Below are positions 6,120-15,417 of a stretch of 64,000 nt of DNA, piece by piece. Position 1 is the first letter of the stretch. Every line of letters starts with the position of its first letter. The notes under the pieces were generated by a model. The model did no database searches. It was not told the origin of the DNA and was given only the letters and a program-made list of their open reading frames with translations. A program made the position numbers and the translations under genes. This stretch comes from Cylindrodendrum hubeiense (lineage: Eukaryota; Ascomycota; Sordariomycetes; Hypocreales; Nectriaceae). The DNA lies in contig JAANBB010000001.1 of assembly GCA_014621425.1 (NCBI GenBank), positions 434,001 through 498,000 of the forward strand. Reading direction: 5' to 3'.

Positions 6120-6755
6120 ATGTCCGGCGCAGAGATTATAGGCCTCATCTCTGGCATCATCTCCCTGATCGATGCATCAATCTCGGTGTACAACGCCGCC
6201 GCAGATGCGTCTGGGCTGCCATCATCTTTCCGTGATGTGGCCTCACGACTCCCGCTGATCAAAGACTCGCTCTCCACGGCGCTGAAGGCCCTGGAGGATG
6301 ATCCTCAAACGCCCGAGGCCGCCGGCGCCCTCACGTCGATGCTTACAGCTTGCAGCGACAAAGCTGTCGCCCTCGAGGCTATTTTCCGGGCCGTCATCCC
6401 AGGAGAAGGTGCTTCAAGGCTTGAGAGATATGGCAAGGCTATGAAAACGCTGCCCAAGGGCGGAAAGGTAGAGACCTTGATGGCGGGGATCCTGGCAGAT
6501 CTACAGGTGTTGGTCTTCCACCAAACATTCAATGTTGCGACGAGGGCGCAGATTGAACGGCTGATTGCGGGGGCGTCGAAAGGGCACGAAAAGGAGATCG
6601 CAAAGCAAGCTTCTCCATCTATGACCTTTCACAATACAGGGACGGGATCTCAGATCGTTCACTCTGGAGATGGGACTCAGAATCTCAATATGGGCTCGGG
6701 TCAGCAGTTCACCGGCGATGGGTTTTCGGGTACATTCTACTTTGGCTCGAAATGA
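6120..6755 (+). CDS. SesA-like cell-death effector with C-terminal amyloid-type motif (effector 1)
   Basis: Intronless, 211 residues. Residues 1-130 match the all-helical SesA type of N-terminal domain seen on fungal NACHT and P-loop NTPases: a hydrophobic first helix (EIIGLISGIISLIDASISVY), then GLPSSFRDVASRLPLIKDSL and a second helical bundle. The C-terminal 40 residues differ sharply and are Gly/Gln/Asn rich: NTGTGSQIVHSGDG (172-185), then TQNLNMGSGQQFTGDG. The G-x-G-x-Q repeats resemble sigma/PP-type prion-forming motifs used in fungal amyloid signalling. The gene ends 85 bp from the 3' end of a convergent NLR whose N terminus carries the same motif. By analogy with HET-S/NWD2, the protein would be an executor templated by the receptor. 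Family and motif are visible; the cell-death role is inference. Confidence 0.85.
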   Translation: MSGAEIIGLISGIISLIDASISVYNAAADASGLPSSFRDVASRLPLIKDSLSTALKALEDDPQTPEAAGALTSMLTACSDKAVALEAIFRAVIPGEGASRLERYGKAMKTLPKGGKVETLMAGILADLQVLVFHQTFNVATRAQIERLIAGASKGHEKEIAKQASPSMTFHNTGTGSQIVHSGDGTQNLNMGSGQQFTGDGFSGTFYFGSK

Positions 6756-6840
6756 AGACTGTTCAATGATTGATATATATCTGTGCTTATTATTTTACTG
6801 AAGCATGAAACTGCGTAAAATCAAAAATCACTCAAGTCTT

Positions 6841-9800
6841 CTATACAGTTCCGCCCGCACTCCGCAGAAGTCCCTCGATGACATTTTGCCTTCCCGCGAA
6901 CACTATCGCTGTCCACCCGTTATTTGACCGCGCATTCACGTCGGCCCCCGCGCCCAACAGAACAGACACAAGGTTGACCTTTCCCGTTTGAGCGGCAAGG
7001 ATCAACGGCGTCCTGTCATACTCATCTTGGATATTGATATCTGCGCCACCCTCCACCAAGGCGGTAACAATGTCCTCGTTGTCGAGCAATACTGCACGGT
7101 GGAGAGCTGCATATCCTTCCTTGTCCTTTACATCCGGGTTTGTAGATTTAGTTAGTAGAAACCGTATCCCTTCGACGTACTTTTGACCAAGCGCCTGATG
7201 AAGCACCGTCAACCCATCTTTGTTCTGGACATCGCCTGACGCTCCGTTGTCTAACAGCACTTGTATCATGGCCGGGTCCTCACTCTGCATCGCGATGCTG
7301 AGGGCTGTCAGGCCATCTTTATCTTGGATTTCCGCCACACCTCCTCTAGATGTGAGGAGTCCAGCGAGATCCTTGTGCTTCTTCTTCACAGCCCGATGCA
7401 AGGCTGTGTCCCCCATCCCATCCTTCACCTTGGCGTCAACCTTCCGATCGAGAAAGTATCTGACAATCTCAAGGTGTCCAAGGAACGAAGCCAGGTGCAG
7501 GGCTGTCATTCCATCTGCATTAGCATCATCTGCCCTGGCGCCGTTCTCGCAGAGCAGCCATACGACTGAGAGGTCCTTCCCTTGGACCGCTAGGTCGAGA
7601 CAGCTATTGCCCCTCTTGTCTCGGAGAGCGACTGGTACATTACTCATGACCAAGATCCATATAACGGAGCTGAGCTTGTTCTTCACTGCATAGTGGAGAG
7701 CTGTCTGACCTCGGTCATTCTGAGCATCTGGCTTTGCCCCGTGTTCTAGCAGCATCCAGACAATGGTCTTTTCGCTCGTCACGGCCCCCATCAGCGCTGT
7801 TGATCCATCCTTGGCTTTGTCGTCGGCGTCGGCTCCATGGTCGAGGAGCAGCTGAACTACCGCTTGGCGATTGTGATATATTGCCCACCTCAGTGGCGAG
7901 TACCCAGTTTGGTCATCCCTCGCATCGACCCTTGCACCCATGCTTAGCAATCGGCGTACCATCTTGACATCCCCGTTTTGGGCCGCCATTCTGAGCGGAA
8001 TCCACCCATCGACACTTGACGGACGATTGATGTCCACTCCTTTCTTGAGGAGGATATCGACGATGTCGTGTCGCTCTCGGTCCATCGCCTCTCTTAACGA
8101 GGTCCAGCCTTCATCCTCGGTGTCGATGTCTGCCTGGTTCTCGGCTAACAATTTAGCAATGGATGAGGGTCCAGAACGCATTGCCCATGTTAACTGTGTA
8201 TACCCCCTTCCCCCACGAATAAATACTCGCGCACCGGCCTTGACGAGTTGATGCACAACATCTGTGCAATCCTTTGTCGACGACATGAGTGCTAGATGCA
8301 GTGGAGTATCGCCCTTTCGGTCTTGAATATTTGTATCGGCAGACTTCTTTGCCAACAACTCGACCAAGTCACCTCGGCCCTCCTTTGCAGCCCAATGGAG
8401 GGCAGTCCGACCATCTGCACATACAGCATCCAGTTTTGCTCCATCTTCAATTAGACGCTCCGCCCAGTCTCGGCGATTGAAGTATATAGAAGCGTGCAAT
8501 CCAGTCATATCAGCCAAGGCAGGACTGGACTTACCAGCTATGATCTGAAACACAGTCCTTACTTTCTCATCGTCTTTCAGGAATGCCATGACTAAGTCCT
8601 CAGCTTCGACATCGACGTACTTCTCTTCCAAGCTGAAATGATTGAACCAGTATCTAGCGGCGTAGCTGAGGAGGGGACGCTCTGTTTCCAGCTCTGACTC
8701 GTCAAACAGCAAATACCTCAGACACAATTTCGCCACATCCATGTCAAACCCCTTTTGTACAATACTGTGACTCCACAAATAGTTCAAGACTGACTCGTGG
8801 ACCAGACTGAGCACCTTTGTCTTGGAGTCCATTGTTACCAGCCCAGCACAGACAGAGACTAAATCTGCCTCCGCTGGTAGAAAGTCCTTGTTGAGAGTAT
8901 TCGTACTGCGAGTGATGGCAAAGCTGTGGCAAATCTGCGTAGAATTGAGTGGCTCTCCAGCAAGCACGACCCAAGTAAGGACATGCTGAGCCAGACTAAA
9001 CTGATACTTTTTGGTTGCTGATTTTCTGTCTATTTTGATCTTCATAATTGAGGTCTCAAAGGCGCTGTGGACAGTGTCTGGTAGTGTTTCCAGTGCGGAT
9101 TTGATACCGCCTAGAGTTCCCTGCTCTCCGAGACTGTCCATGTGCAATTTGGCCAGGAGAAAACTTGCGGCAGTTAGTAATTTACACTAGAGTCATAGAG
9201 GAGATACGATACTCACATTCCCCCGGTAGCGTCAGCTACTTTATTGACCACTGTGGCTTCAAAATCCGGATCTGGTTCCTTTGCTATCTCTCGCTGGAGC
9301 ACTCTATCCTCCCGGATTCGACTTCTGATGTACTTTTCAACATCATCACGCTTTGGTTGAAGCTCGAACTTCTGTACTTCTTGGAGGCCCCAAGTGTCGA
9401 GAAATCCACCCCTAGAGGTGACGAGGACCTTGACATTGTCTGGCACTGAGCTCAAAGCGTCTTGGATCTTGTCTCTGGTGTTTTCTTTGACAGAATTCTG
9501 ACAATTATCCAGGCCTTCAACTACCAGGTAGACTTTCTGGAACGTGGCAATCTCGAGGTTAAACAAGTTGATGTAGTCATCTGGGGTGGGAAGAATCCTC
9601 AGATCGAGCCAGTGTTCATACTTGTCCTGTAGTTCTTTCGCTACCTCTTCGGATTTTCGGCATTGAAGTAGTTGTATTAACAAATTCATAAAAATGTTGG
9701 CATATGTTGGCCGCTGTTCTTGCCTGGATCCACTCGGCTGATCCTGTCCATCCTGGAAATAGACGTAGATACAAGCGGTATTTTCAACCCCTTCGGTGGC

Positions 9801-10487
9801 TTTCTGGAGCGAATCTATTATTAAGGACCTAAAATGCAGGTATTTAGTATTCCCAGTTCATTTCATGAAGTGAGGATTTTTTAGTGACGGTACTCACGAA
9901 AGCATTGATTTGCCGGATCCGACTATTCAGCGCTGAACGTTAGTCAAAGACATACCACCCAACATCGTTCAAATAATGCTTACGAATTCCATATATCCAG
10001 AAGAATTTAGATGGATTCTCGATGTTCACCCACTGTTTAAAACCGTCGCCCTCGAGTGCCCATGTGCCAGTTCCTGTCACCATTTGATCTGCGAGAATCT
10101 GATGGTGGGCTCGAAAATCGAGTTTTGACTCAGGTTTGAGCCATTCAATTATGGCAACACCTTGACGCAATTGTTAGCAACAGCGATGGCCCTGGGTTTC
10201 TTTATCGCAGACGCACGGGATGGTAGATCGGAAGTATCATCTCCTTGGTGAATCAACTCAGCCATTTGCGAAGAAGGTCCGTATACTACAAAGTAACGTT
10301 AGCAGCGTATCTCAAAAATATAGTGAGTTTTTTTCTCACTGTTGTAGACTTTCTGCGTCCGAATTAAGTTCTGGACGCCATTATCGCCTTTAAGGACACC
10401 CAGATCTCCATCGCCTTGATGCAATGGCTGCGTGCCGCTGCCTTTGTTTTCGGCTGTAACTTGCCTAGGAGGCTCTGGTGACGGCAT
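6841..10487 (-). CDS. NLR receptor: N-terminal amyloid-type motif, NACHT, about 17 ankyrin repeats
   Basis: Six predicted exons (10340-10487, 10217-10285, 9984-10160, 9898-9922, 9217-9828, 6841-9163) give 1117 residues. The first in-frame ATG after an upstream TAA is at 10487; longer open frames here start without ATG. Residues 14-27 read NKGSGTQPLHQGDG, the motif shared with both flanking small genes, followed by GVLKGDNGVQNL. A linker (VAIIEWLKP, then DQMVTGTGTWALEGDGFKQW) leads to the NACHT domain: Walker A ILGSGKSML at about 132-140, Walker B-like VYLVVEGLDNC, and VKVLVTSR. Walker A sits on a 25-nt micro-exon. A winged-helix-like region follows, then about 17 ankyrin repeats (DGRTALHWAA, KGDTPLHLAL and so on) to the end. 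The ankyrins would sense a ligand; NACHT oligomerisation would expose a motif seed to the effectors. Confidence 0.88.
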
Positions 10488-11043
10488 GTTGACGTGCCCA
10501 AAAACGTTGACGATGGCTCTATTCCTGTCCCACAGTTTCACTGACTCTTGGAAGTGGATGGGAATTTACAGATGAAAAACGGCTGCCTGAGACAAATAGC
10601 GCAGCGTCGCATTTAGAGGCTATGGTTGTGGCTTGGCCAAAATGCACAGCAGGCAAGATGGGGGCTAGTAAATAGTTCAGCGGTAATAATAGGCTGTGAT
10701 TCGTGGCCTGCTTATCCCACATGATCCAGCCAGCTTATGCACGTCCAGCCTCCACTATGCATTTGACGAGGCATTCTCGGCCTCAGAGCCAGGGTTGTGC
10801 TTGATGGTGTGGACATGGGTGTGTTTTCCTAAGAAAGCGGATCAACCCGCCAGCCCATCGAGATTTCCCTCTGTTCTTGGTGTCAGCCGCGAATCTGTCA
10901 CTTCAATCAACGTCTCAGAGATCACATTTAAAATTGCCCTCCTGTGAGATCCGGACGCATCCGCATTTCTCGTTCAAATACAATACCCTAGCTCCACTGA
11001 ATATCTTAGTCGTCAATCCCGGGCCCTTGTCCACCTTTCGAGA
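10488..11043. other. Intergenic, divergent promoter of NLR and effector 2
   Basis: 556 bp shared by the head-to-head NLR and second SesA-like gene, so co-expression is possible. A 67-codon frame on the minus strand looks spurious. No distinct motif seen. Confidence 0.5.
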
Positions 11044-11706
11044 ATGCCGAGCGCAGCGACAAAGAAAACGATCAAGGAGATTGAGCGGCGCATCTCCTCA
11101 ATTGAGACCACCATCGAAAAAGTCAACGAAGTTGAGCAGGGCACCACCCTACCCCAAGCTTTCCCTGTGGTGGCTGGATATCTCCCTCTCGTTGTTAAAG
11201 TTCTCTCGTCTATTGTGTCGCATTTAAAGGAAAAGGAGAGTGCCGAGGAAACTGAAGATGATAAGGAGAGCTACCTCGAAATGAAGGCGGCGGCTGAAGA
11301 ATGGCGCTCTCTGGTGGAGCGACTAGATGACCTTTTCGACACTATCCCGTCCGAAGACTCTAGTGCGTGGGTCGATCGCTATCGCGAGGCCGTGGGCAGT
11401 GATGATAGGCTGGAGGAGGTGATGCGAGCGTTGCTCAGTGGCATTCGTGATATCGCCAAGGTGCCTCTTGTCAACGAGGACGAAATCAAGGATCTCCAGG
11501 AGGCGCTGAAGGTCGTCAAGCGTCTGCCCCCATCGTTGGAGGATGGCGGCAAAACGGGCCAGAATTTTATCAACAATGGGCCTGGGATTATGCCGATCCA
11601 TCTTGGGAAGGGGGAGCTAAACGTCAATTCTGGACCTGGCTTCATGGTCACTGGAAAAGGCGCTCACAGCACAGTGAATTATAACGGACAGAAGCCCCCA
11701 TCCTAG
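11044..11706 (+). CDS. Second SesA-like protein with C-terminal amyloid-type motif (effector 2)
   Basis: Intronless, 220 residues. The helical region follows effector 1 block by block: TLPQAFPVVAGYLPLVVKVL matches GLPSSFRDVASRLPLIKDSL, and a later block ending in LEEVMRALLSGIRDIAKV matches VETLMAGILADLQVL. The C terminus is again Gly rich: NNGPGIMPIHLGKG at residues 177-190, then ELNVNSGPGFMVTGKG. Aligned with effector 1, N, G, G, H, G, G and the following N-x-N-x-G-x-G fall at identical spacing over 30 positions, but the Gln residues are lost. It lies head to head with the NLR. The N-terminal helices are more charged than in effector 1. It could be a second executor, a decoy or a diverged paralogue; the sequence does not decide. 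Confidence 0.8.
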   Translation: MPSAATKKTIKEIERRISSIETTIEKVNEVEQGTTLPQAFPVVAGYLPLVVKVLSSIVSHLKEKESAEETEDDKESYLEMKAAAEEWRSLVERLDDLFDTIPSEDSSAWVDRYREAVGSDDRLEEVMRALLSGIRDIAKVPLVNEDEIKDLQEALKVVKRLPPSLEDGGKTGQNFINNGPGIMPIHLGKGELNVNSGPGFMVTGKGAHSTVNYNGQKPPS

Positions 11707-13081
11707 ACTTTGCTTTACAAGCAGGCTCGAATTTGTACCTTCTGCAGATTGTTAGACTTGGGATCATAAATCCCTCAATATGTATTGAGAGTATGCCAAT
11801 TTCTTTTCTATTATTATTCTCTGCATAACAACCGAGTAGTCTGGCCTTATCTTCGGCTCTCTTGCTTATAATGTCATGGCGTAAATTGAGCCTGGCCAGC
11901 CCAGCCTCAACCGTCCTACCCTCACTCCCCTGACCCGTCTTCCTAGTGCTGGTGCAACGCATATATACAGTCGCACACGAGATAAGGATCAGAAAAGCTG
12001 CAAATGGCCGGAAGTACCGGAAATCGAAACGTCGGAAATCACACCAAATTCAACCAATCCCTAAGGATCAGCGCTGAACCTCTAATTATTAGTACATCAG
12101 CCTCTAATTCTTAGCGCTAAACCTCTAACTCTTAGTGCACAAAGCCCCTAACTCTTAATACTGGAATGGGCAGAAACGCATGCTGGGTCTTGCCGAAAGT
12201 CTGGGTAATAGGACCGCAACCACACAGCCAAGCGAGCGATTGACAACCCGAATACTACATGCGTGTTATTATGCTCTAGTTAAAGAATGTATCGTATGAC
12301 TCGGGGTAAGACAATGTGAATTGGAGAATGTAAGTTCATTGAGTCGGCAACAACGGGCTGTCAGCGACAAGTTCGGCCTTGGTTTAGGACTATTGGCTCA
12401 ATTTAATTGTTGATCAGTCATTGAGATCGCTAAGGGAATATTTTGAGGACAGCAGACTAGACTGTCGACCTTCATCTTTGGCATTCTGAATCATCAGTAT
12501 CTTCAGTCATCTTGGGAGTCATCTTTAGAGATGCTCAGTTGTTAATCTTTTCGGCCCATTTCCCACCATCCTTTAGTGATTCATCTAAACAGACGGTAGT
12601 GCAAGGTGGTATCGATCAGACTTGTCTTCATGGTTCATTTCCATCGTCCCAAGTCCCGACCTTGCCCATCATTGAGGACGGATCGCCAGCTCACATACCA
12701 CACACAACACAGTCCTTTTAAGTGGGTTGCTGGGAGTTCCAGTGCCTCCTCCATGCTCCCCCACCACACGGCAGTATAGAGGACAATATATTCTGTACTA
12801 AAATAATTTACATAGGTAGCCTCTCCAGTGTACGACCAAACAAGTACGCTAATATTCCTAATCCCAACGAGGACATTGGTTCATGGAAGCTTTACGTAAC
12901 GTCACCTTGCTCCGCTTCCCAGGTGCCGCTGCACGACGCCATCTTCCCCGCACTAAACTATCCGGGGTACATGCCGTGTGGTCCGAGGCCTTCGGAATCA
13001 ACTTTTCGTTTTTGTACTCTCGGAATCCTCGTCATCTCCACCCTGAACCACACATTGACCACTTCCGGCTGTCGGTCAAAC
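11707..13081. other. Intergenic, no gene recognised
   Basis: 1.4 kb with a small degenerate tandem repeat near 12.1 kb. Short overlapping frames at 12.5-13.2 kb have no family content. The end of the stretch is the promoter of the next regulator. Confidence 0.5.
12077..12164. repeat. Degenerate 22-bp tandem repeat, four copies
   Basis: Units start at 12077, 12099, 12121 and 12143, each built on CCTCTAAYTCTTAGYRC with a variable tail. There is no terminal inverted repeat or coding sequence nearby that would make it a transposon end. Confidence 0.75.
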
Positions 13082-15417
13082 ATGGCCAGCGTCAAAAAAC
13101 GTCGCTTTCCGTACACGCGCGTCGCATGGTGTGGTCTGCACCTCGTCAGTCTCCAACTGTTCATCGCTAACCTCGCGTTTCAGCGACAAATGCCAGCGCC
13201 GCAAAATAAAATGCAGCGGGGAGCAGCCGTGCAAGGGATGTCGCGAGGGTGACGACATGTGCGTCTACAAACGCACCACGCGCTTCCGCTCCGCACGTCG
13301 TGGCTCGTGAGCTTCTTTCTGTCCATCTCGCCCTCTAATTCTCACTGACAATGACATTCTGCAAGCATTGGCACCAACACGCAAAGCTCGGAGGAGGCTT
13401 TGGAGCAGGATCATGCCATTGTGGTGGCGCCGAGCGTAAATTCGGCCTCTGGTCGCCGGAGTGTCGACCTCAACGCTTCGGCTCCGCCTTCCATGCTGGA
13501 CAACTCTGATTATTATCTTCGTCTTGCTGAGCAACGCCTTGTTGCTTTGAGCCCCGAGCAGAGCGATGCACCCCCACAGCGGCTTCGAAAGATAATGGTC
13601 GGGGCTGAGTCTATGCGACAGCTCGTCAATCATCGCACCGGCGGATCCCCGGGCGGGTTTCTGGCGGCTTTTGAGGCAAAGTACTGGATCAAAGTCATGC
13701 TAATCTATGAAGAAGAAATTGGTCTCCAATATCCATTTCTTGACATCGAGAAATTGAAGTACGACATAAGAGCGATCCGTTTCTCCCGAAGTAGTGCGGG
13801 AGTGCGCTCCACGGCAGCCAAAACCGCCAAAGAAGCGCGCTTGGAAGATGTCGCCTTCGTCATCCACGCAATTGTTTCAACTCTCACGGACCCCGCAGCT
13901 ATTAACGTCGCCAACCCTGTGATTGAAGAGATATTTACAGGTGCCATTGGCAGGACGCAGCTGAATGGCGTCGACAGGGATGAGTTGTGCGTGTTGATTC
14001 TCGCTGTGAGCCCTAATTCCCCAGTCTCTTCATGAACATCATCTGACCTGATACTTAGAGCATGTATTATTTCCTGAGCGACAGGGAGATCACAGCATGG
14101 CGAGGAATAGGGATAGTCATGCGACTGCTGCAGGAGCTGACCTGCAATGGCTCAGACGATCTACGCGTTAAATCTTCGTCCGAGCAGCTGCAAAGTGTAG
14201 GAGAAAAACTATACTGGTCAGCATACACGCTTGATCGCCGCTGGGGCTTTGGCACGGGATTGCCGTTTGCGATTCAGGATTCCGACATTAACCATCATCC
14301 CAGCTTTGCGGTAAGCACCTACTCTGTTCCGTTTCGCATGTTGTGTCTAAATAATTGGCCAAAGGACGATTCATTATCGTGTGCATACCTGAAATCCATG
14401 GTTTCATATGGTAGCGTCGCATCAGATGTCCGAAAGTCCATCCTCGATGCATCACTATCCCTGCCAGCAACATCAGCGTCAACGCGAGATCTACTCAACT
14501 TCCGAGTTGTACGATGGCAGAAGAATCTCCCGGCAAGGCTCCAGTTCCGGGGCGTTGACGATGGGTTTGACGCAGCCAAAGAGAGTCGCGGAGAGTACAA
14601 ACTGCGCCTCATGCTGCATCTCAGAGCAAACCAAATGCGAACCGTTATCCACAGGAAGTCGACAGTACAGTCTGAACCCGGCAGTTTCGATCCCTCCAGC
14701 ATCAACGACATGGTTGAGATAGCGCAGGACACCATCCGCATTCTTGTTGGACTAGCTCGGACGACGGACATTTACCACGCACAGCACAGGACATTCAACC
14801 ACTTCCTGGAGACGGCCCTGTCGTCTTTACTTCTTATTATGTGCTGCGCCGGGGCTGAGCAGAGTGTGTCATGCCTGCAGGATGTCGTTGCAGCAATGGA
14901 GCTTGTACGACAGCTATCGGCACAGTCACCTATCTCACGGAGACTGGGAGACAAATTACAGGGTATACAAGATGTCGTGGATAATATCCAAGCCCAAGGT
15001 CAGGAGTTGCCACGTTCAGCAGATCGTTCAGCCAGCTCGGTAACGGGACCAGAATCGGTCAACGTACAAAGCAACCCAACAAACTCATTTATTTCCTGTA
15101 CAACCGGCTCCCAAAAGACAAATACCGGAGCTGAGGATTCAATGATATCACAACCGGGCTTTGATCAAATTGATCCAAATCTTCAACCAGCCTTGATGCA
15201 GGAACCTCCAGTTGACAGAATCTCGACACAAGGTGCGCTATGTCCACCTATATTTCCATCTACGTCCGACCCCTCCTCAGAACTAGGCTTAGGGATAGCC
15301 CCTTTGCCAGCGTTGGATATTTCGCATGCTTTTGAGTCCTTGGACGGAGACTTTCGTTCCTTGCAATCAACAGAACTCTGGGATATCTTGAAGGACTATG
15401 AGAATTTTGGCTTCTAG
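13082..15417 (+). CDS. Zn2Cys6 transcription factor with fungal-specific TF domain
   Basis: Predicted exons 13082-13128, 13184-13306, 13366-14005, 14059-14310 and 14365-15417 encode about 704 residues. The DNA-binding cluster appears only after splicing: CDKCQRRKIKCSGEQPCKGC, then REGDDMC, with the first Cys codon split by intron 1 (branch CGCTAAC). The basic flank is KKRRFPYTRVA. The middle has a fungal-specific TF domain (YWSAYTLDRRWGFGTGLPFA). The C terminus is acidic and polar, as in an activation region. The fourth intron (14311-14364) is 54 bp and has no in-frame stop, so retention would add 18 residues without a frameshift. A nuclear role is expected; targets are unknown. The nearest genes are the NLR locus upstream and a broken NLR downstream. 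Confidence 0.88.

What the first reader, a model, noticed from the sequence alone, without database searches (positions are those of the whole stretch)
6120..11706. Three-gene amyloid-signalling candidate: one NLR flanked by two SesA-like proteins with the same motif
The NLR N terminus (residues 14-27, NKGSGTQPLHQGDG), effector 1 C terminus (NTGTGSQIVHSGDG) and effector 2 C terminus (NNGPGIMPIHLGKG) align without gaps as N-x-G-x-G-x4-H-x-G-x-G. In known systems (HET-S/NWD2; HELLP-SBP-PNT1) a receptor-borne motif templates the amyloid fold of an adjacent executor. Motif position (receptor N terminus, effector C terminus) and gene adjacency fit exactly. Two SesA-type proteins on either side of one ankyrin NLR, rather than one HeLo or hydrolase partner, may be undescribed.
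Basis: partly seen in the sequence, partly recalled or inferred. Interest (0 to 1): 0.85.

Follow-up and report, generated by a model that had tools for sequence, protein, structure and literature searches.

The report
Fungal prion-like immune gene trio
Three neighbouring fungal genes, an immune-type receptor and two partner proteins, share a short motif of a kind thought to pass a self-copying amyloid signal; the arrangement is of a known sort, but one partner belongs to a separate, conserved class that seems to lack the usual membrane-killing helix.

Summary
In Cylindrodendrum hubeiense (Nectriaceae) an ankyrin NACHT receptor (10487-6841, -) lies between two SesA proteins, E1 (6120-6755, +) and E2 (11044-11706, +). 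The 14-residue pattern occurs three times in six frames of the window, once in each gene (expected 0.002; pattern chosen after the fact). E1 passes Pfam NACHT_sigma, so the motif is of the sigma type, not HET-s or PP; E2 and the receptor do not reach that model. The same columns recur in E1, E2 and receptor relatives, and the deposited gene model keeps the motif-bearing N terminus. The locus is of the ses/het-eN kind described in 2012; that paper already mentions ankyrin receptors, varying gene order and loci with two adjacent sesA copies. Not found described: E2 is a separate SesA clade in which the hydrophobic first helix seen in the 31 other SesA proteins examined is replaced by a charged one while the motif is kept. 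I read E1 as the membrane-active executor and E2 as a non-killing motif carrier that relays or dampens the signal. This species' E2 has none of the motif's three glutamines, so degeneration is possible. Templating and amyloid formation are untested.

The parts
6120..6755 (+). E1: SesA protein with C-terminal sigma motif, 211 aa, no intron
   Evidence: PF17107 125.5 bits and PF17106 34.6 bits, both above cut-off
6126..6197 (+). E1 helix 1 (residues 3-26), strongly hydrophobic
   Evidence: model helix H3-26; best 19-residue Kyte-Doolittle mean 1.91
6147..6512 (+). E1 SesA domain (residues 10-131)
6624..6746 (+). E1 sigma motif (residues 169-209), submotif order A-B-A
   Evidence: PF17106 match; low-confidence tail in the model
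6756..6840 (.). 85-base convergent gap between the stop codons of E1 and NLR
6841..10487 (-). NLR gene, 1117 aa, predicted exons 10487-10340, 10285-10217, 10160-9984, 9922-9898, 9828-9217, 9163-6841
   Evidence: splice model; same N-terminal protein as deposited G7Z17_g118
10371..10448 (-). NLR N-terminal sigma-like motif (residues 14-39)
   Evidence: N14, G18, Q20, G25, D26, G27, N36, G37, Q39 invariant in the 7 NLRs aligned
9213..10173 (-). NLR nucleotide-binding part (NPHP3_N, a NACHT-type domain) with P-loop GILGSGKS across exons 3-4
   Evidence: PF24883 on the exon-5 frame (E 3.2e-13) and, below cut-off, the exon-3 frame; P-loop by splicing
6844..8415 (-). Ankyrin repeats of the NLR (approximate bounds)
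   Evidence: PF12796 E 1e-139, 12 stretches; PF00023 14 stretches
10488..11043 (.). 556-base divergent gap between NLR and E2 start codons, possible shared promoter
   Evidence: promoter role is inference
11044..11706 (+). E2: SesA protein of a separate clade with C-terminal sigma-like motif, 220 aa, no intron
   Evidence: PF17107 59.6 bits; clade support 100/99
11053..11127 (+). E2 helix 1 (residues 4-28), charged instead of hydrophobic
   Evidence: model helix H4-28; best 19-residue mean -0.41, ten D/E/K/R in residues 1-26
11572..11655 (+). E2 sigma-like motif (residues 177-204); its three Q/M positions read M, L and M here, where the 7 relatives keep Q at the second and third
   Evidence: no PF17106 match in this copy

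Best explanation
A sigma-type (ses locus) NLR signalling unit. Inferred working: ligand binding by the ankyrin part makes the NACHT receptor oligomerise; its clustered N-terminal sigma motifs adopt a cross-beta fold; this templates the C-terminal sigma motifs of the two SesA partners encoded on either side. E1, with a hydrophobic first helix comparable to the N-terminal segment that HET-S needs, is then freed to attack membranes and cause cell death. E2, a separate SesA clade with a charged first helix, carries the motif but probably does not insert through that helix; it would relay, scaffold or dampen the signal. Shown here: gene structures, domains, shared and conserved motif, the two SesA classes. 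Not shown: amyloid, templating, cell death, and the role of E2.
For: SesA domains in E1 and E2, NACHT_sigma in E1 above cut-off. NLR with P-loop and ankyrins and no N-terminal effector domain found. Motif unique to the trio in the window. A profile of 15 E1-family tails without the window finds the NLR exon-1 frame at E 7.5e-4, the best of the 911 window frames apart from E1 (E2's frame 4.4e-3; next unrelated 1.6), and five Fusarium NLR N termini at 3.8e-5 to 1.9e-4. Steady columns agree between the families. Co-location: E1 and E2 relatives on a longest contig of the same length in Ilyonectria robusta (tags AUP68_09995/09994), Dactylonectria macrodidyma (807926/807929) and D. estremocensis; E1 and NLR relatives with adjacent tags in Neonectria magnoliae (QQZ08_005458/005459). 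E2 motif identity to I. robusta 78% against 63% for its domain. E2 clade 100/99; helix-1 hydrophobicity -0.41 to 1.04 in 7 E2 proteins against 1.48 to 2.23 in 31 others. Published: HET-S exposes a ~34-residue N-terminal membrane segment, whose TMHMM signal HET-s lacks, though other predictors see it in both (PMC3531502, passages including part of the abstract, and section 13).
Against: The NLR N terminus gives no Pfam hit in this species or in the three relatives tried. With the E1 profile the two Neonectria NLRs score only E 6-7, full-length P0036 0.015, and 9 of the 17 NLR hits nothing at E 10; with the E2 profile the NLR frame (0.012) barely beats an unrelated frame (0.034). PF17106 is precomputed for only 6 of 27 E1-family proteins, and 1 of 4 E1 relatives rescanned passes its cut-off. 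E2 here has no PF17106 match; its best relative reaches 18.6 bits against 27.6. E1's motif is no better conserved than its domain (76% v 79% to I. robusta). E1-E2 motif identity is not higher within a species than between (37% in C. hubeiense, 45% for its E1 against I. robusta E2), unlike the within-cluster similarity reported in 2012. A complete trio was seen only in this species. The five closest E2 proteins keep another hydrophobic stretch near residue 40 (1.28-1.86), so E2 may still bind membranes.
Confidence: 0.78

Rival explanations
1. Both SesA proteins are ordinary killers run in parallel by one receptor; E2 merely uses its second, hydrophobic segment (residues ~37-60) for membrane insertion.
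For: E2 and its four closest full-length relatives have a hydrophobic 19-mer starting at residues 36-40 (1.28-1.86); a single NLR activating two effectors is a published idea (PMC5485727, passages).
Against: Helix 1 is less hydrophobic in all seven E2 proteins than in any of the 31 other SesA proteins; in HET-S the N-terminal segment is the critical one.
Confidence: 0.3
2. E2 is degenerating in this species: its sigma motif has lost its glutamines and no longer responds to the receptor.
For: L and M where all 7 relatives keep Q in the second and third submotifs; no PF17106 match.
Against: Open frame intact; SesA part of the model confident (block means 72-94 over residues 1-160); M at the first position is also in 3 of 7 relatives, so M is tolerated; the NLR shares L at column 16, found in no other NLR (1 of 7) or E2 (1 of 8) row, though in 2 of 27 E1-family rows; the tree does not show E2 here as unusually fast, since the Dactylonectria copies lie farther from the shared fork.
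Confidence: 0.25
3. The resemblance is only a shared G/N-rich, low-complexity composition and means nothing.
For: Glycine-rich tails align easily; the Pfam sigma model does not reach the NLR or the window's E2.
Against: Shuffles that keep composition reach the scores in at most 1 of 5000; the same columns are steady in 27 E1-family, 8 E2 and 7 NLR rows; E1 passes the curated cut-off.
Confidence: 0.05

Closest known systems
ses (s) locus of Nectria haematococca: sesA, sesB, het-eN (sigma element)
   Same: SesA protein with C-terminal sigma motif next to an ankyrin NACHT receptor with the motif at its N terminus (PMC3321046 passages; PMC516043 abstract and section 15)
   Different: No hydrolase (SesB) gene in the trio; a second, distant SesA instead; receptor and E2 motifs do not reach the Pfam sigma model
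ses-type loci with two adjacent sesA copies (Daskalov 2012)
   Same: Two SesA genes at one STAND locus; stated in the text
   Different: The passage does not give species, does not say the copies flank the receptor, and does not say whether one has a charged first helix; figures are not held
HET-S/HET-s and NWD2 (Podospora)
   Same: Works like it: receptor N-terminal motif, effector C-terminal motif, neighbouring divergent genes; a killer and a non-killer differing in the N-terminal segment (PMC3531502)
   Different: HET-S and HET-s are alleles with HeLo domains and the HET-s motif; E1 and E2 are distant paralogues with SesA domains and the sigma motif
HELLP/SBP/PNT1 (PP motif)
   Same: One receptor thought to serve two different effectors (PMC5485727 passages)
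   Different: Different effectors and the PP motif; in this genome a separate HeLo-looking plus SesB-like pair with PP-like termini exists on contig C325

Membership tests
sigma-type ses/STAND locus | SesA-domain effector gene next to an NLR gene | tested here: met
   PF17107 in E1 and E2, both adjacent to the NLR
sigma-type ses/STAND locus | Receptor with NACHT-type domain and repeats and no N-terminal effector domain | tested here: met
   PF24883 above cut-off on the exon-5 frame, PF22939 below its cut-off (22.2 bits), ankyrins; N-terminal 81 residues match no Pfam family at E up to 10
sigma-type ses/STAND locus | sigma motif at effector C terminus by the curated model: E1 | tested here: met
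   PF17106 34.6 bits against cut-off 27.6
sigma-type ses/STAND locus | sigma motif at effector C terminus by the curated model: E2 | tested here: inconclusive
   Not reached in the window; of six E2 relatives scanned four give 18.6, 15.7, 14.5 and 9.7 bits, all below cut-off, and two give no hit; aligned columns agree
sigma-type ses/STAND locus | sigma motif at the receptor N terminus | tested here: inconclusive
   Curated model not reached in 4 of 4 NLR N termini; own profile from E1-family tails E 7.5e-4 for exon 1, 0.015 for the whole NLR, 3.8e-5 to 1.9e-4 for five Fusarium NLRs, 6-7 for two Neonectria NLRs, nothing for the other 9 of 17
sigma-type ses/STAND locus | Three-fold A/B submotif order (GxGxQFNxx, GGTQNINT) | tested here: met
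   By eye, E1 reads GTGSQ / GDGTQNLN / GSGQQF, as A-B-A; consensus from PMC3321046
sigma-type ses/STAND locus | Motif forms amyloid and is templated by the receptor | not testable with these tools
   Needs peptides or expression
HET-s (HRAM) motif system | HET-s motif and HeLo domain in the effector | tested here: not met
   No HET-s or HeLo family listed for E1, E2 or the NLR pieces at E up to 10; one E1 relative, P0011, has a HeLo match at E 0.098, below cut-off
PP-motif system (PF17046 profile) | Pseudopalindromic motif in effector and receptor | tested here: not met
   No PF17046 hit in E1, E2 or NLR pieces; the genome's two hits above cut-off lie on C325
MLKL/HeLo-like helical bundle | Same fold by structure comparison | tested here: inconclusive

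The most novel reading that the evidence does not exclude
One receptor commands a matched pair of SesA proteins: a killer (E1) and a conserved, disarmed sibling (E2) that takes up the same amyloid but cannot insert its first helix, so it sets the threshold of, or spreads, the death signal: a built-in HET-S/HET-s-like pair at one locus rather than as alleles.
Probability: 0.3. Interest if true: 0.72.

Novelty: new variant of a known kind. Interest (0 to 1): 0.42.

Why it matters
In the passages I read, amyloid signalling in fungi is described with receptors and executors; a conserved partner that keeps the amyloid tag but seems to lack the killing helix would show how such self-copying signals are limited or relayed. 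The published ses locus controls a bistable, infectious cytoplasmic state (PMC516043, abstract and section 15), and a receptor with one armed and one unarmed SesA would give a defined, testable system for asking how the threshold is set.

Tried and rejected
HET-s and PP readings: no such families in E1, E2 or the NLR pieces. Recent tandem duplication of E1 and E2: rejected, 22% domain identity and separate clades. Within-cluster co-evolution of E1 and E2 motifs: not seen in the four species compared, one of whose E1 tails is shortened. Faster evolution of this E2: not borne out; its end branch is long next to P0002 and P0003, but the Dactylonectria copies lie farther from the shared fork. On checking I therefore lowered the degeneration rival from 0.30 to 0.25. 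Sequence searches of solved structures gave no credible relative; the low E-values for the E2 alignment are repeat and designed proteins. Foldseek gave nothing at E 0.001 for either model; HET-S did not appear among the rows shown, which excludes nothing.

Rows dropped: of the 17 NLR hits (P0036-P0052) seven were aligned. P0041 is a partial record and was left out; P0043 was read and begins without such a motif; P0051 lacks the N terminus; P0045-P0050 and P0052 were not read, only scored, without a hit from the E1 profile. P0006, an N-terminally short E2 copy from I. robusta, is in the motif counts but not in the helix test or tree; the self-hits P0001 and P0009 are in neither.

In-genome SesA relatives: C73, C92 and C777 lie just before a NACHT frame, and may be in-cis fusions or pairs, not resolved; C46 carries a sigma-like tail followed, by eye, by a NACHT-like remnant with stops; tblastn with the NLRs (E 1e-3) found nothing in the pieces fetched from C46. 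They were therefore no use as a matched-motif control.

Literature: no paper describing a SesA class without the hydrophobic helix was seen in the listings; subscription journals are not held, so this is weak. No paper was read whole; PMC9815663 and PMC12258605 were seen as passages only.
Full report
Setting. The window is part of a 748,395-base contig of a 47.5 Mb genome. Its NLR is 100% identical over the compared region to G7Z17_g118 of Cylindrodendrum hubeiense, a member of the Nectriaceae.

Gene structures. E1 is an intronless 211-residue frame at 6120-6755 (+); E2 an intronless 220-residue frame at 11044-11706 (+). The receptor lies between them on the minus strand. With five small introns (53-69 bases) it reads as 1117 residues from 10487 to 6841. 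The deposited protein (1047 residues) has the same N-terminal half, motif included, and leaves out two stretches in the ankyrin part where my frame is open; neither version has transcript support here. E1 and the receptor converge (85 bases between stops); the receptor and E2 diverge (556 bases between starts).

Domains. E1: SesA 125.5 bits and NACHT_sigma 34.6 bits, both above cut-off. E2: SesA 59.6 bits, no sigma match. Receptor pieces: NPHP3_N (a NACHT-type domain), a GPIID_WHD match below its cut-off, and ankyrin repeats (12 stretches of PF12796, 14 of PF00023); nothing for exon 1. The spliced protein has the P-loop GILGSGKS.

The motif is real. In six frames of the window the pattern N.G.G....H.G.G occurs three times, in the three genes, with 0.0019 expected. 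The pattern was taken from the three sequences, so the small number overstates the case; shuffles of the tails, independent of the pattern, reach the observed alignment scores in 0, 1 and 0 of 5000. A profile built from 15 E1-family tails (of 26 relatives; window left out) finds the receptor's exon-1 frame at E 7.5e-4, second only to E1 among 911 window frames (E2's frame 4.4e-3; next unrelated frame 1.6). Of the 17 NLR hits it finds five Fusarium receptors at 3.8e-5 to 1.9e-4 at their N termini, the window's own at 0.015, two Neonectria receptors only at 6-7, and nothing in the other nine. A profile from five E2 tails is much less decisive (0.012 for the exon-1 frame against 0.034 for an unrelated frame).

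What is conserved. Counts on the aligned motif. E1 family (27 rows): G5 and G14 in 27, Q7 in 26, N1 in 24. E2 clade (8 rows, taken from an alignment that also holds E1-family rows): N1, G5, G12, G14 in 8, Q7 in only 4 (M in 4, the window's among them). Receptors (7 of 17 hits aligned; the four Fusarium rows are near-copies): N1, G5, Q7, G12, D13, G14 in 7. The shared H is a frequent family feature (16 of 27, 7 of 8, 3 of 7), not a mark of this locus; the exact pattern is matched by 10 of 27, 6 of 8 and 1 of 7 rows. E1 shows the three submotifs of the published sigma motif in the order A-B-A (consensus in PMC3321046). The Pfam sigma model itself is patchy in this family: precomputed for 6 of 27 E1-family proteins, above cut-off in 1 of 4 E1 relatives and 0 of 6 E2 relatives rescanned, and silent on four receptor N termini.

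Neighbours in other species. E1 and E2 relatives share a longest-contig length in Ilyonectria robusta (adjacent tags), Dactylonectria macrodidyma (tags three apart) and D. estremocensis. E1 and receptor relatives have adjacent tags in Neonectria magnoliae. A full trio was seen only here; other fungal DNA could not be fetched.

Two classes of SesA. A tree of 38 SesA proteins (P0006, an N-terminally short copy, and the two self-hits left out) separates the seven E2 proteins with 100/99 support. In the same 38, the most hydrophobic 19-residue stretch within residues 1-32 has a Kyte-Doolittle mean of -0.41 to 1.04 in the seven E2 proteins and 1.48 to 2.23 in the other 31, with no overlap. The rows are related, so the rank test (p 5e-5) should not be read as independent evidence, and 26 of the 31 were collected with E1 as query; the two in-genome SesA proteins C46 and C777, distant from E1, are also hydrophobic. 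P0007, the first E2 row to branch off as the tree is drawn, is intermediate (1.04). The five closest E2 proteins keep a hydrophobic stretch further in, starting at residues 36-40. In HET-S, the buried N-terminal segment is what enters membranes, and HET-s, its non-killing prion counterpart, lacks the TMHMM signal (PMC3531502). SesA is described as remotely related to HeLo and HeLo-like domains (PMC5485727 passage). From this I infer an armed E1 and an unarmed E2.

E2 in this species. Where all seven relatives read Q in the second and third submotifs, this E2 reads L and M; the first reads M, as in three of seven relatives. The receptor also reads L for Q at column 16, unlike the other six receptors aligned; among 27 E1-family rows L occurs there twice, not in the window's E1. 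Either E2 and the receptor have changed together, or both are decaying at that site. With one species this is only a lead. E1 and E2 motifs are no more alike within species than between, which is against tight cluster-wide matching. E2's motif is better kept than its domain between C. hubeiense and I. robusta (78% v 63%), E1's is not (76% v 79%).

Wider genome. Four further SesA frames were found; three precede NACHT frames and one has a sigma-like tail followed, by eye, by a broken NACHT-like stretch. The PF17046 (Ses_B) profile hits a separate pair on C325: a protein that looks like a HeLo protein and a hydrolase-like one, both ending in a PP-like motif (domain names there are my reading, not a search). 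So the genome seems to hold at least two different amyloid-motif systems.

Verdict. The finding is a sound observation of a sigma-type ses locus. Two sesA copies at one STAND locus, varying gene order and ankyrin receptors are in print (PMC3321046 passages). The part worth following is the conserved second class of SesA.

Noticed in passing
L045/L046/L048/L049 (contig C325:21490-23664): A HeLo-looking protein and a SesB-like hydrolase on opposite strands, both ending in NxGFQLGxNTG, a PP-like motif; tblastn with the window's, a Fusarium and a Neonectria NLR (E 0.01) found nothing in the 19.9 kb fetched.
   Followed up: partly
L040 1-1200 (contig C46:266700-267899): A SesA protein with a sigma-like tail, followed by a NACHT-like stretch with stops, looking like a decayed SesA/receptor pair.
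   Followed up: partly
L044 ~179-256 (contig C556:242478-242555): A short sigma-like stretch (22.9 bits, below cut-off) in a 39-residue frame.
   Followed up: no
L035/L036, L037/L038, L041/L042 (contigs C73, C92, C777): SesA frames directly upstream of NACHT frames on the same strand, possibly one-protein versions of the same system.
   Followed up: partly
13059-13310 +: A short frame with the cysteine spacing of a Zn(II)2Cys6 transcription factor (recognised by eye, recalled, not searched).
   Followed up: no
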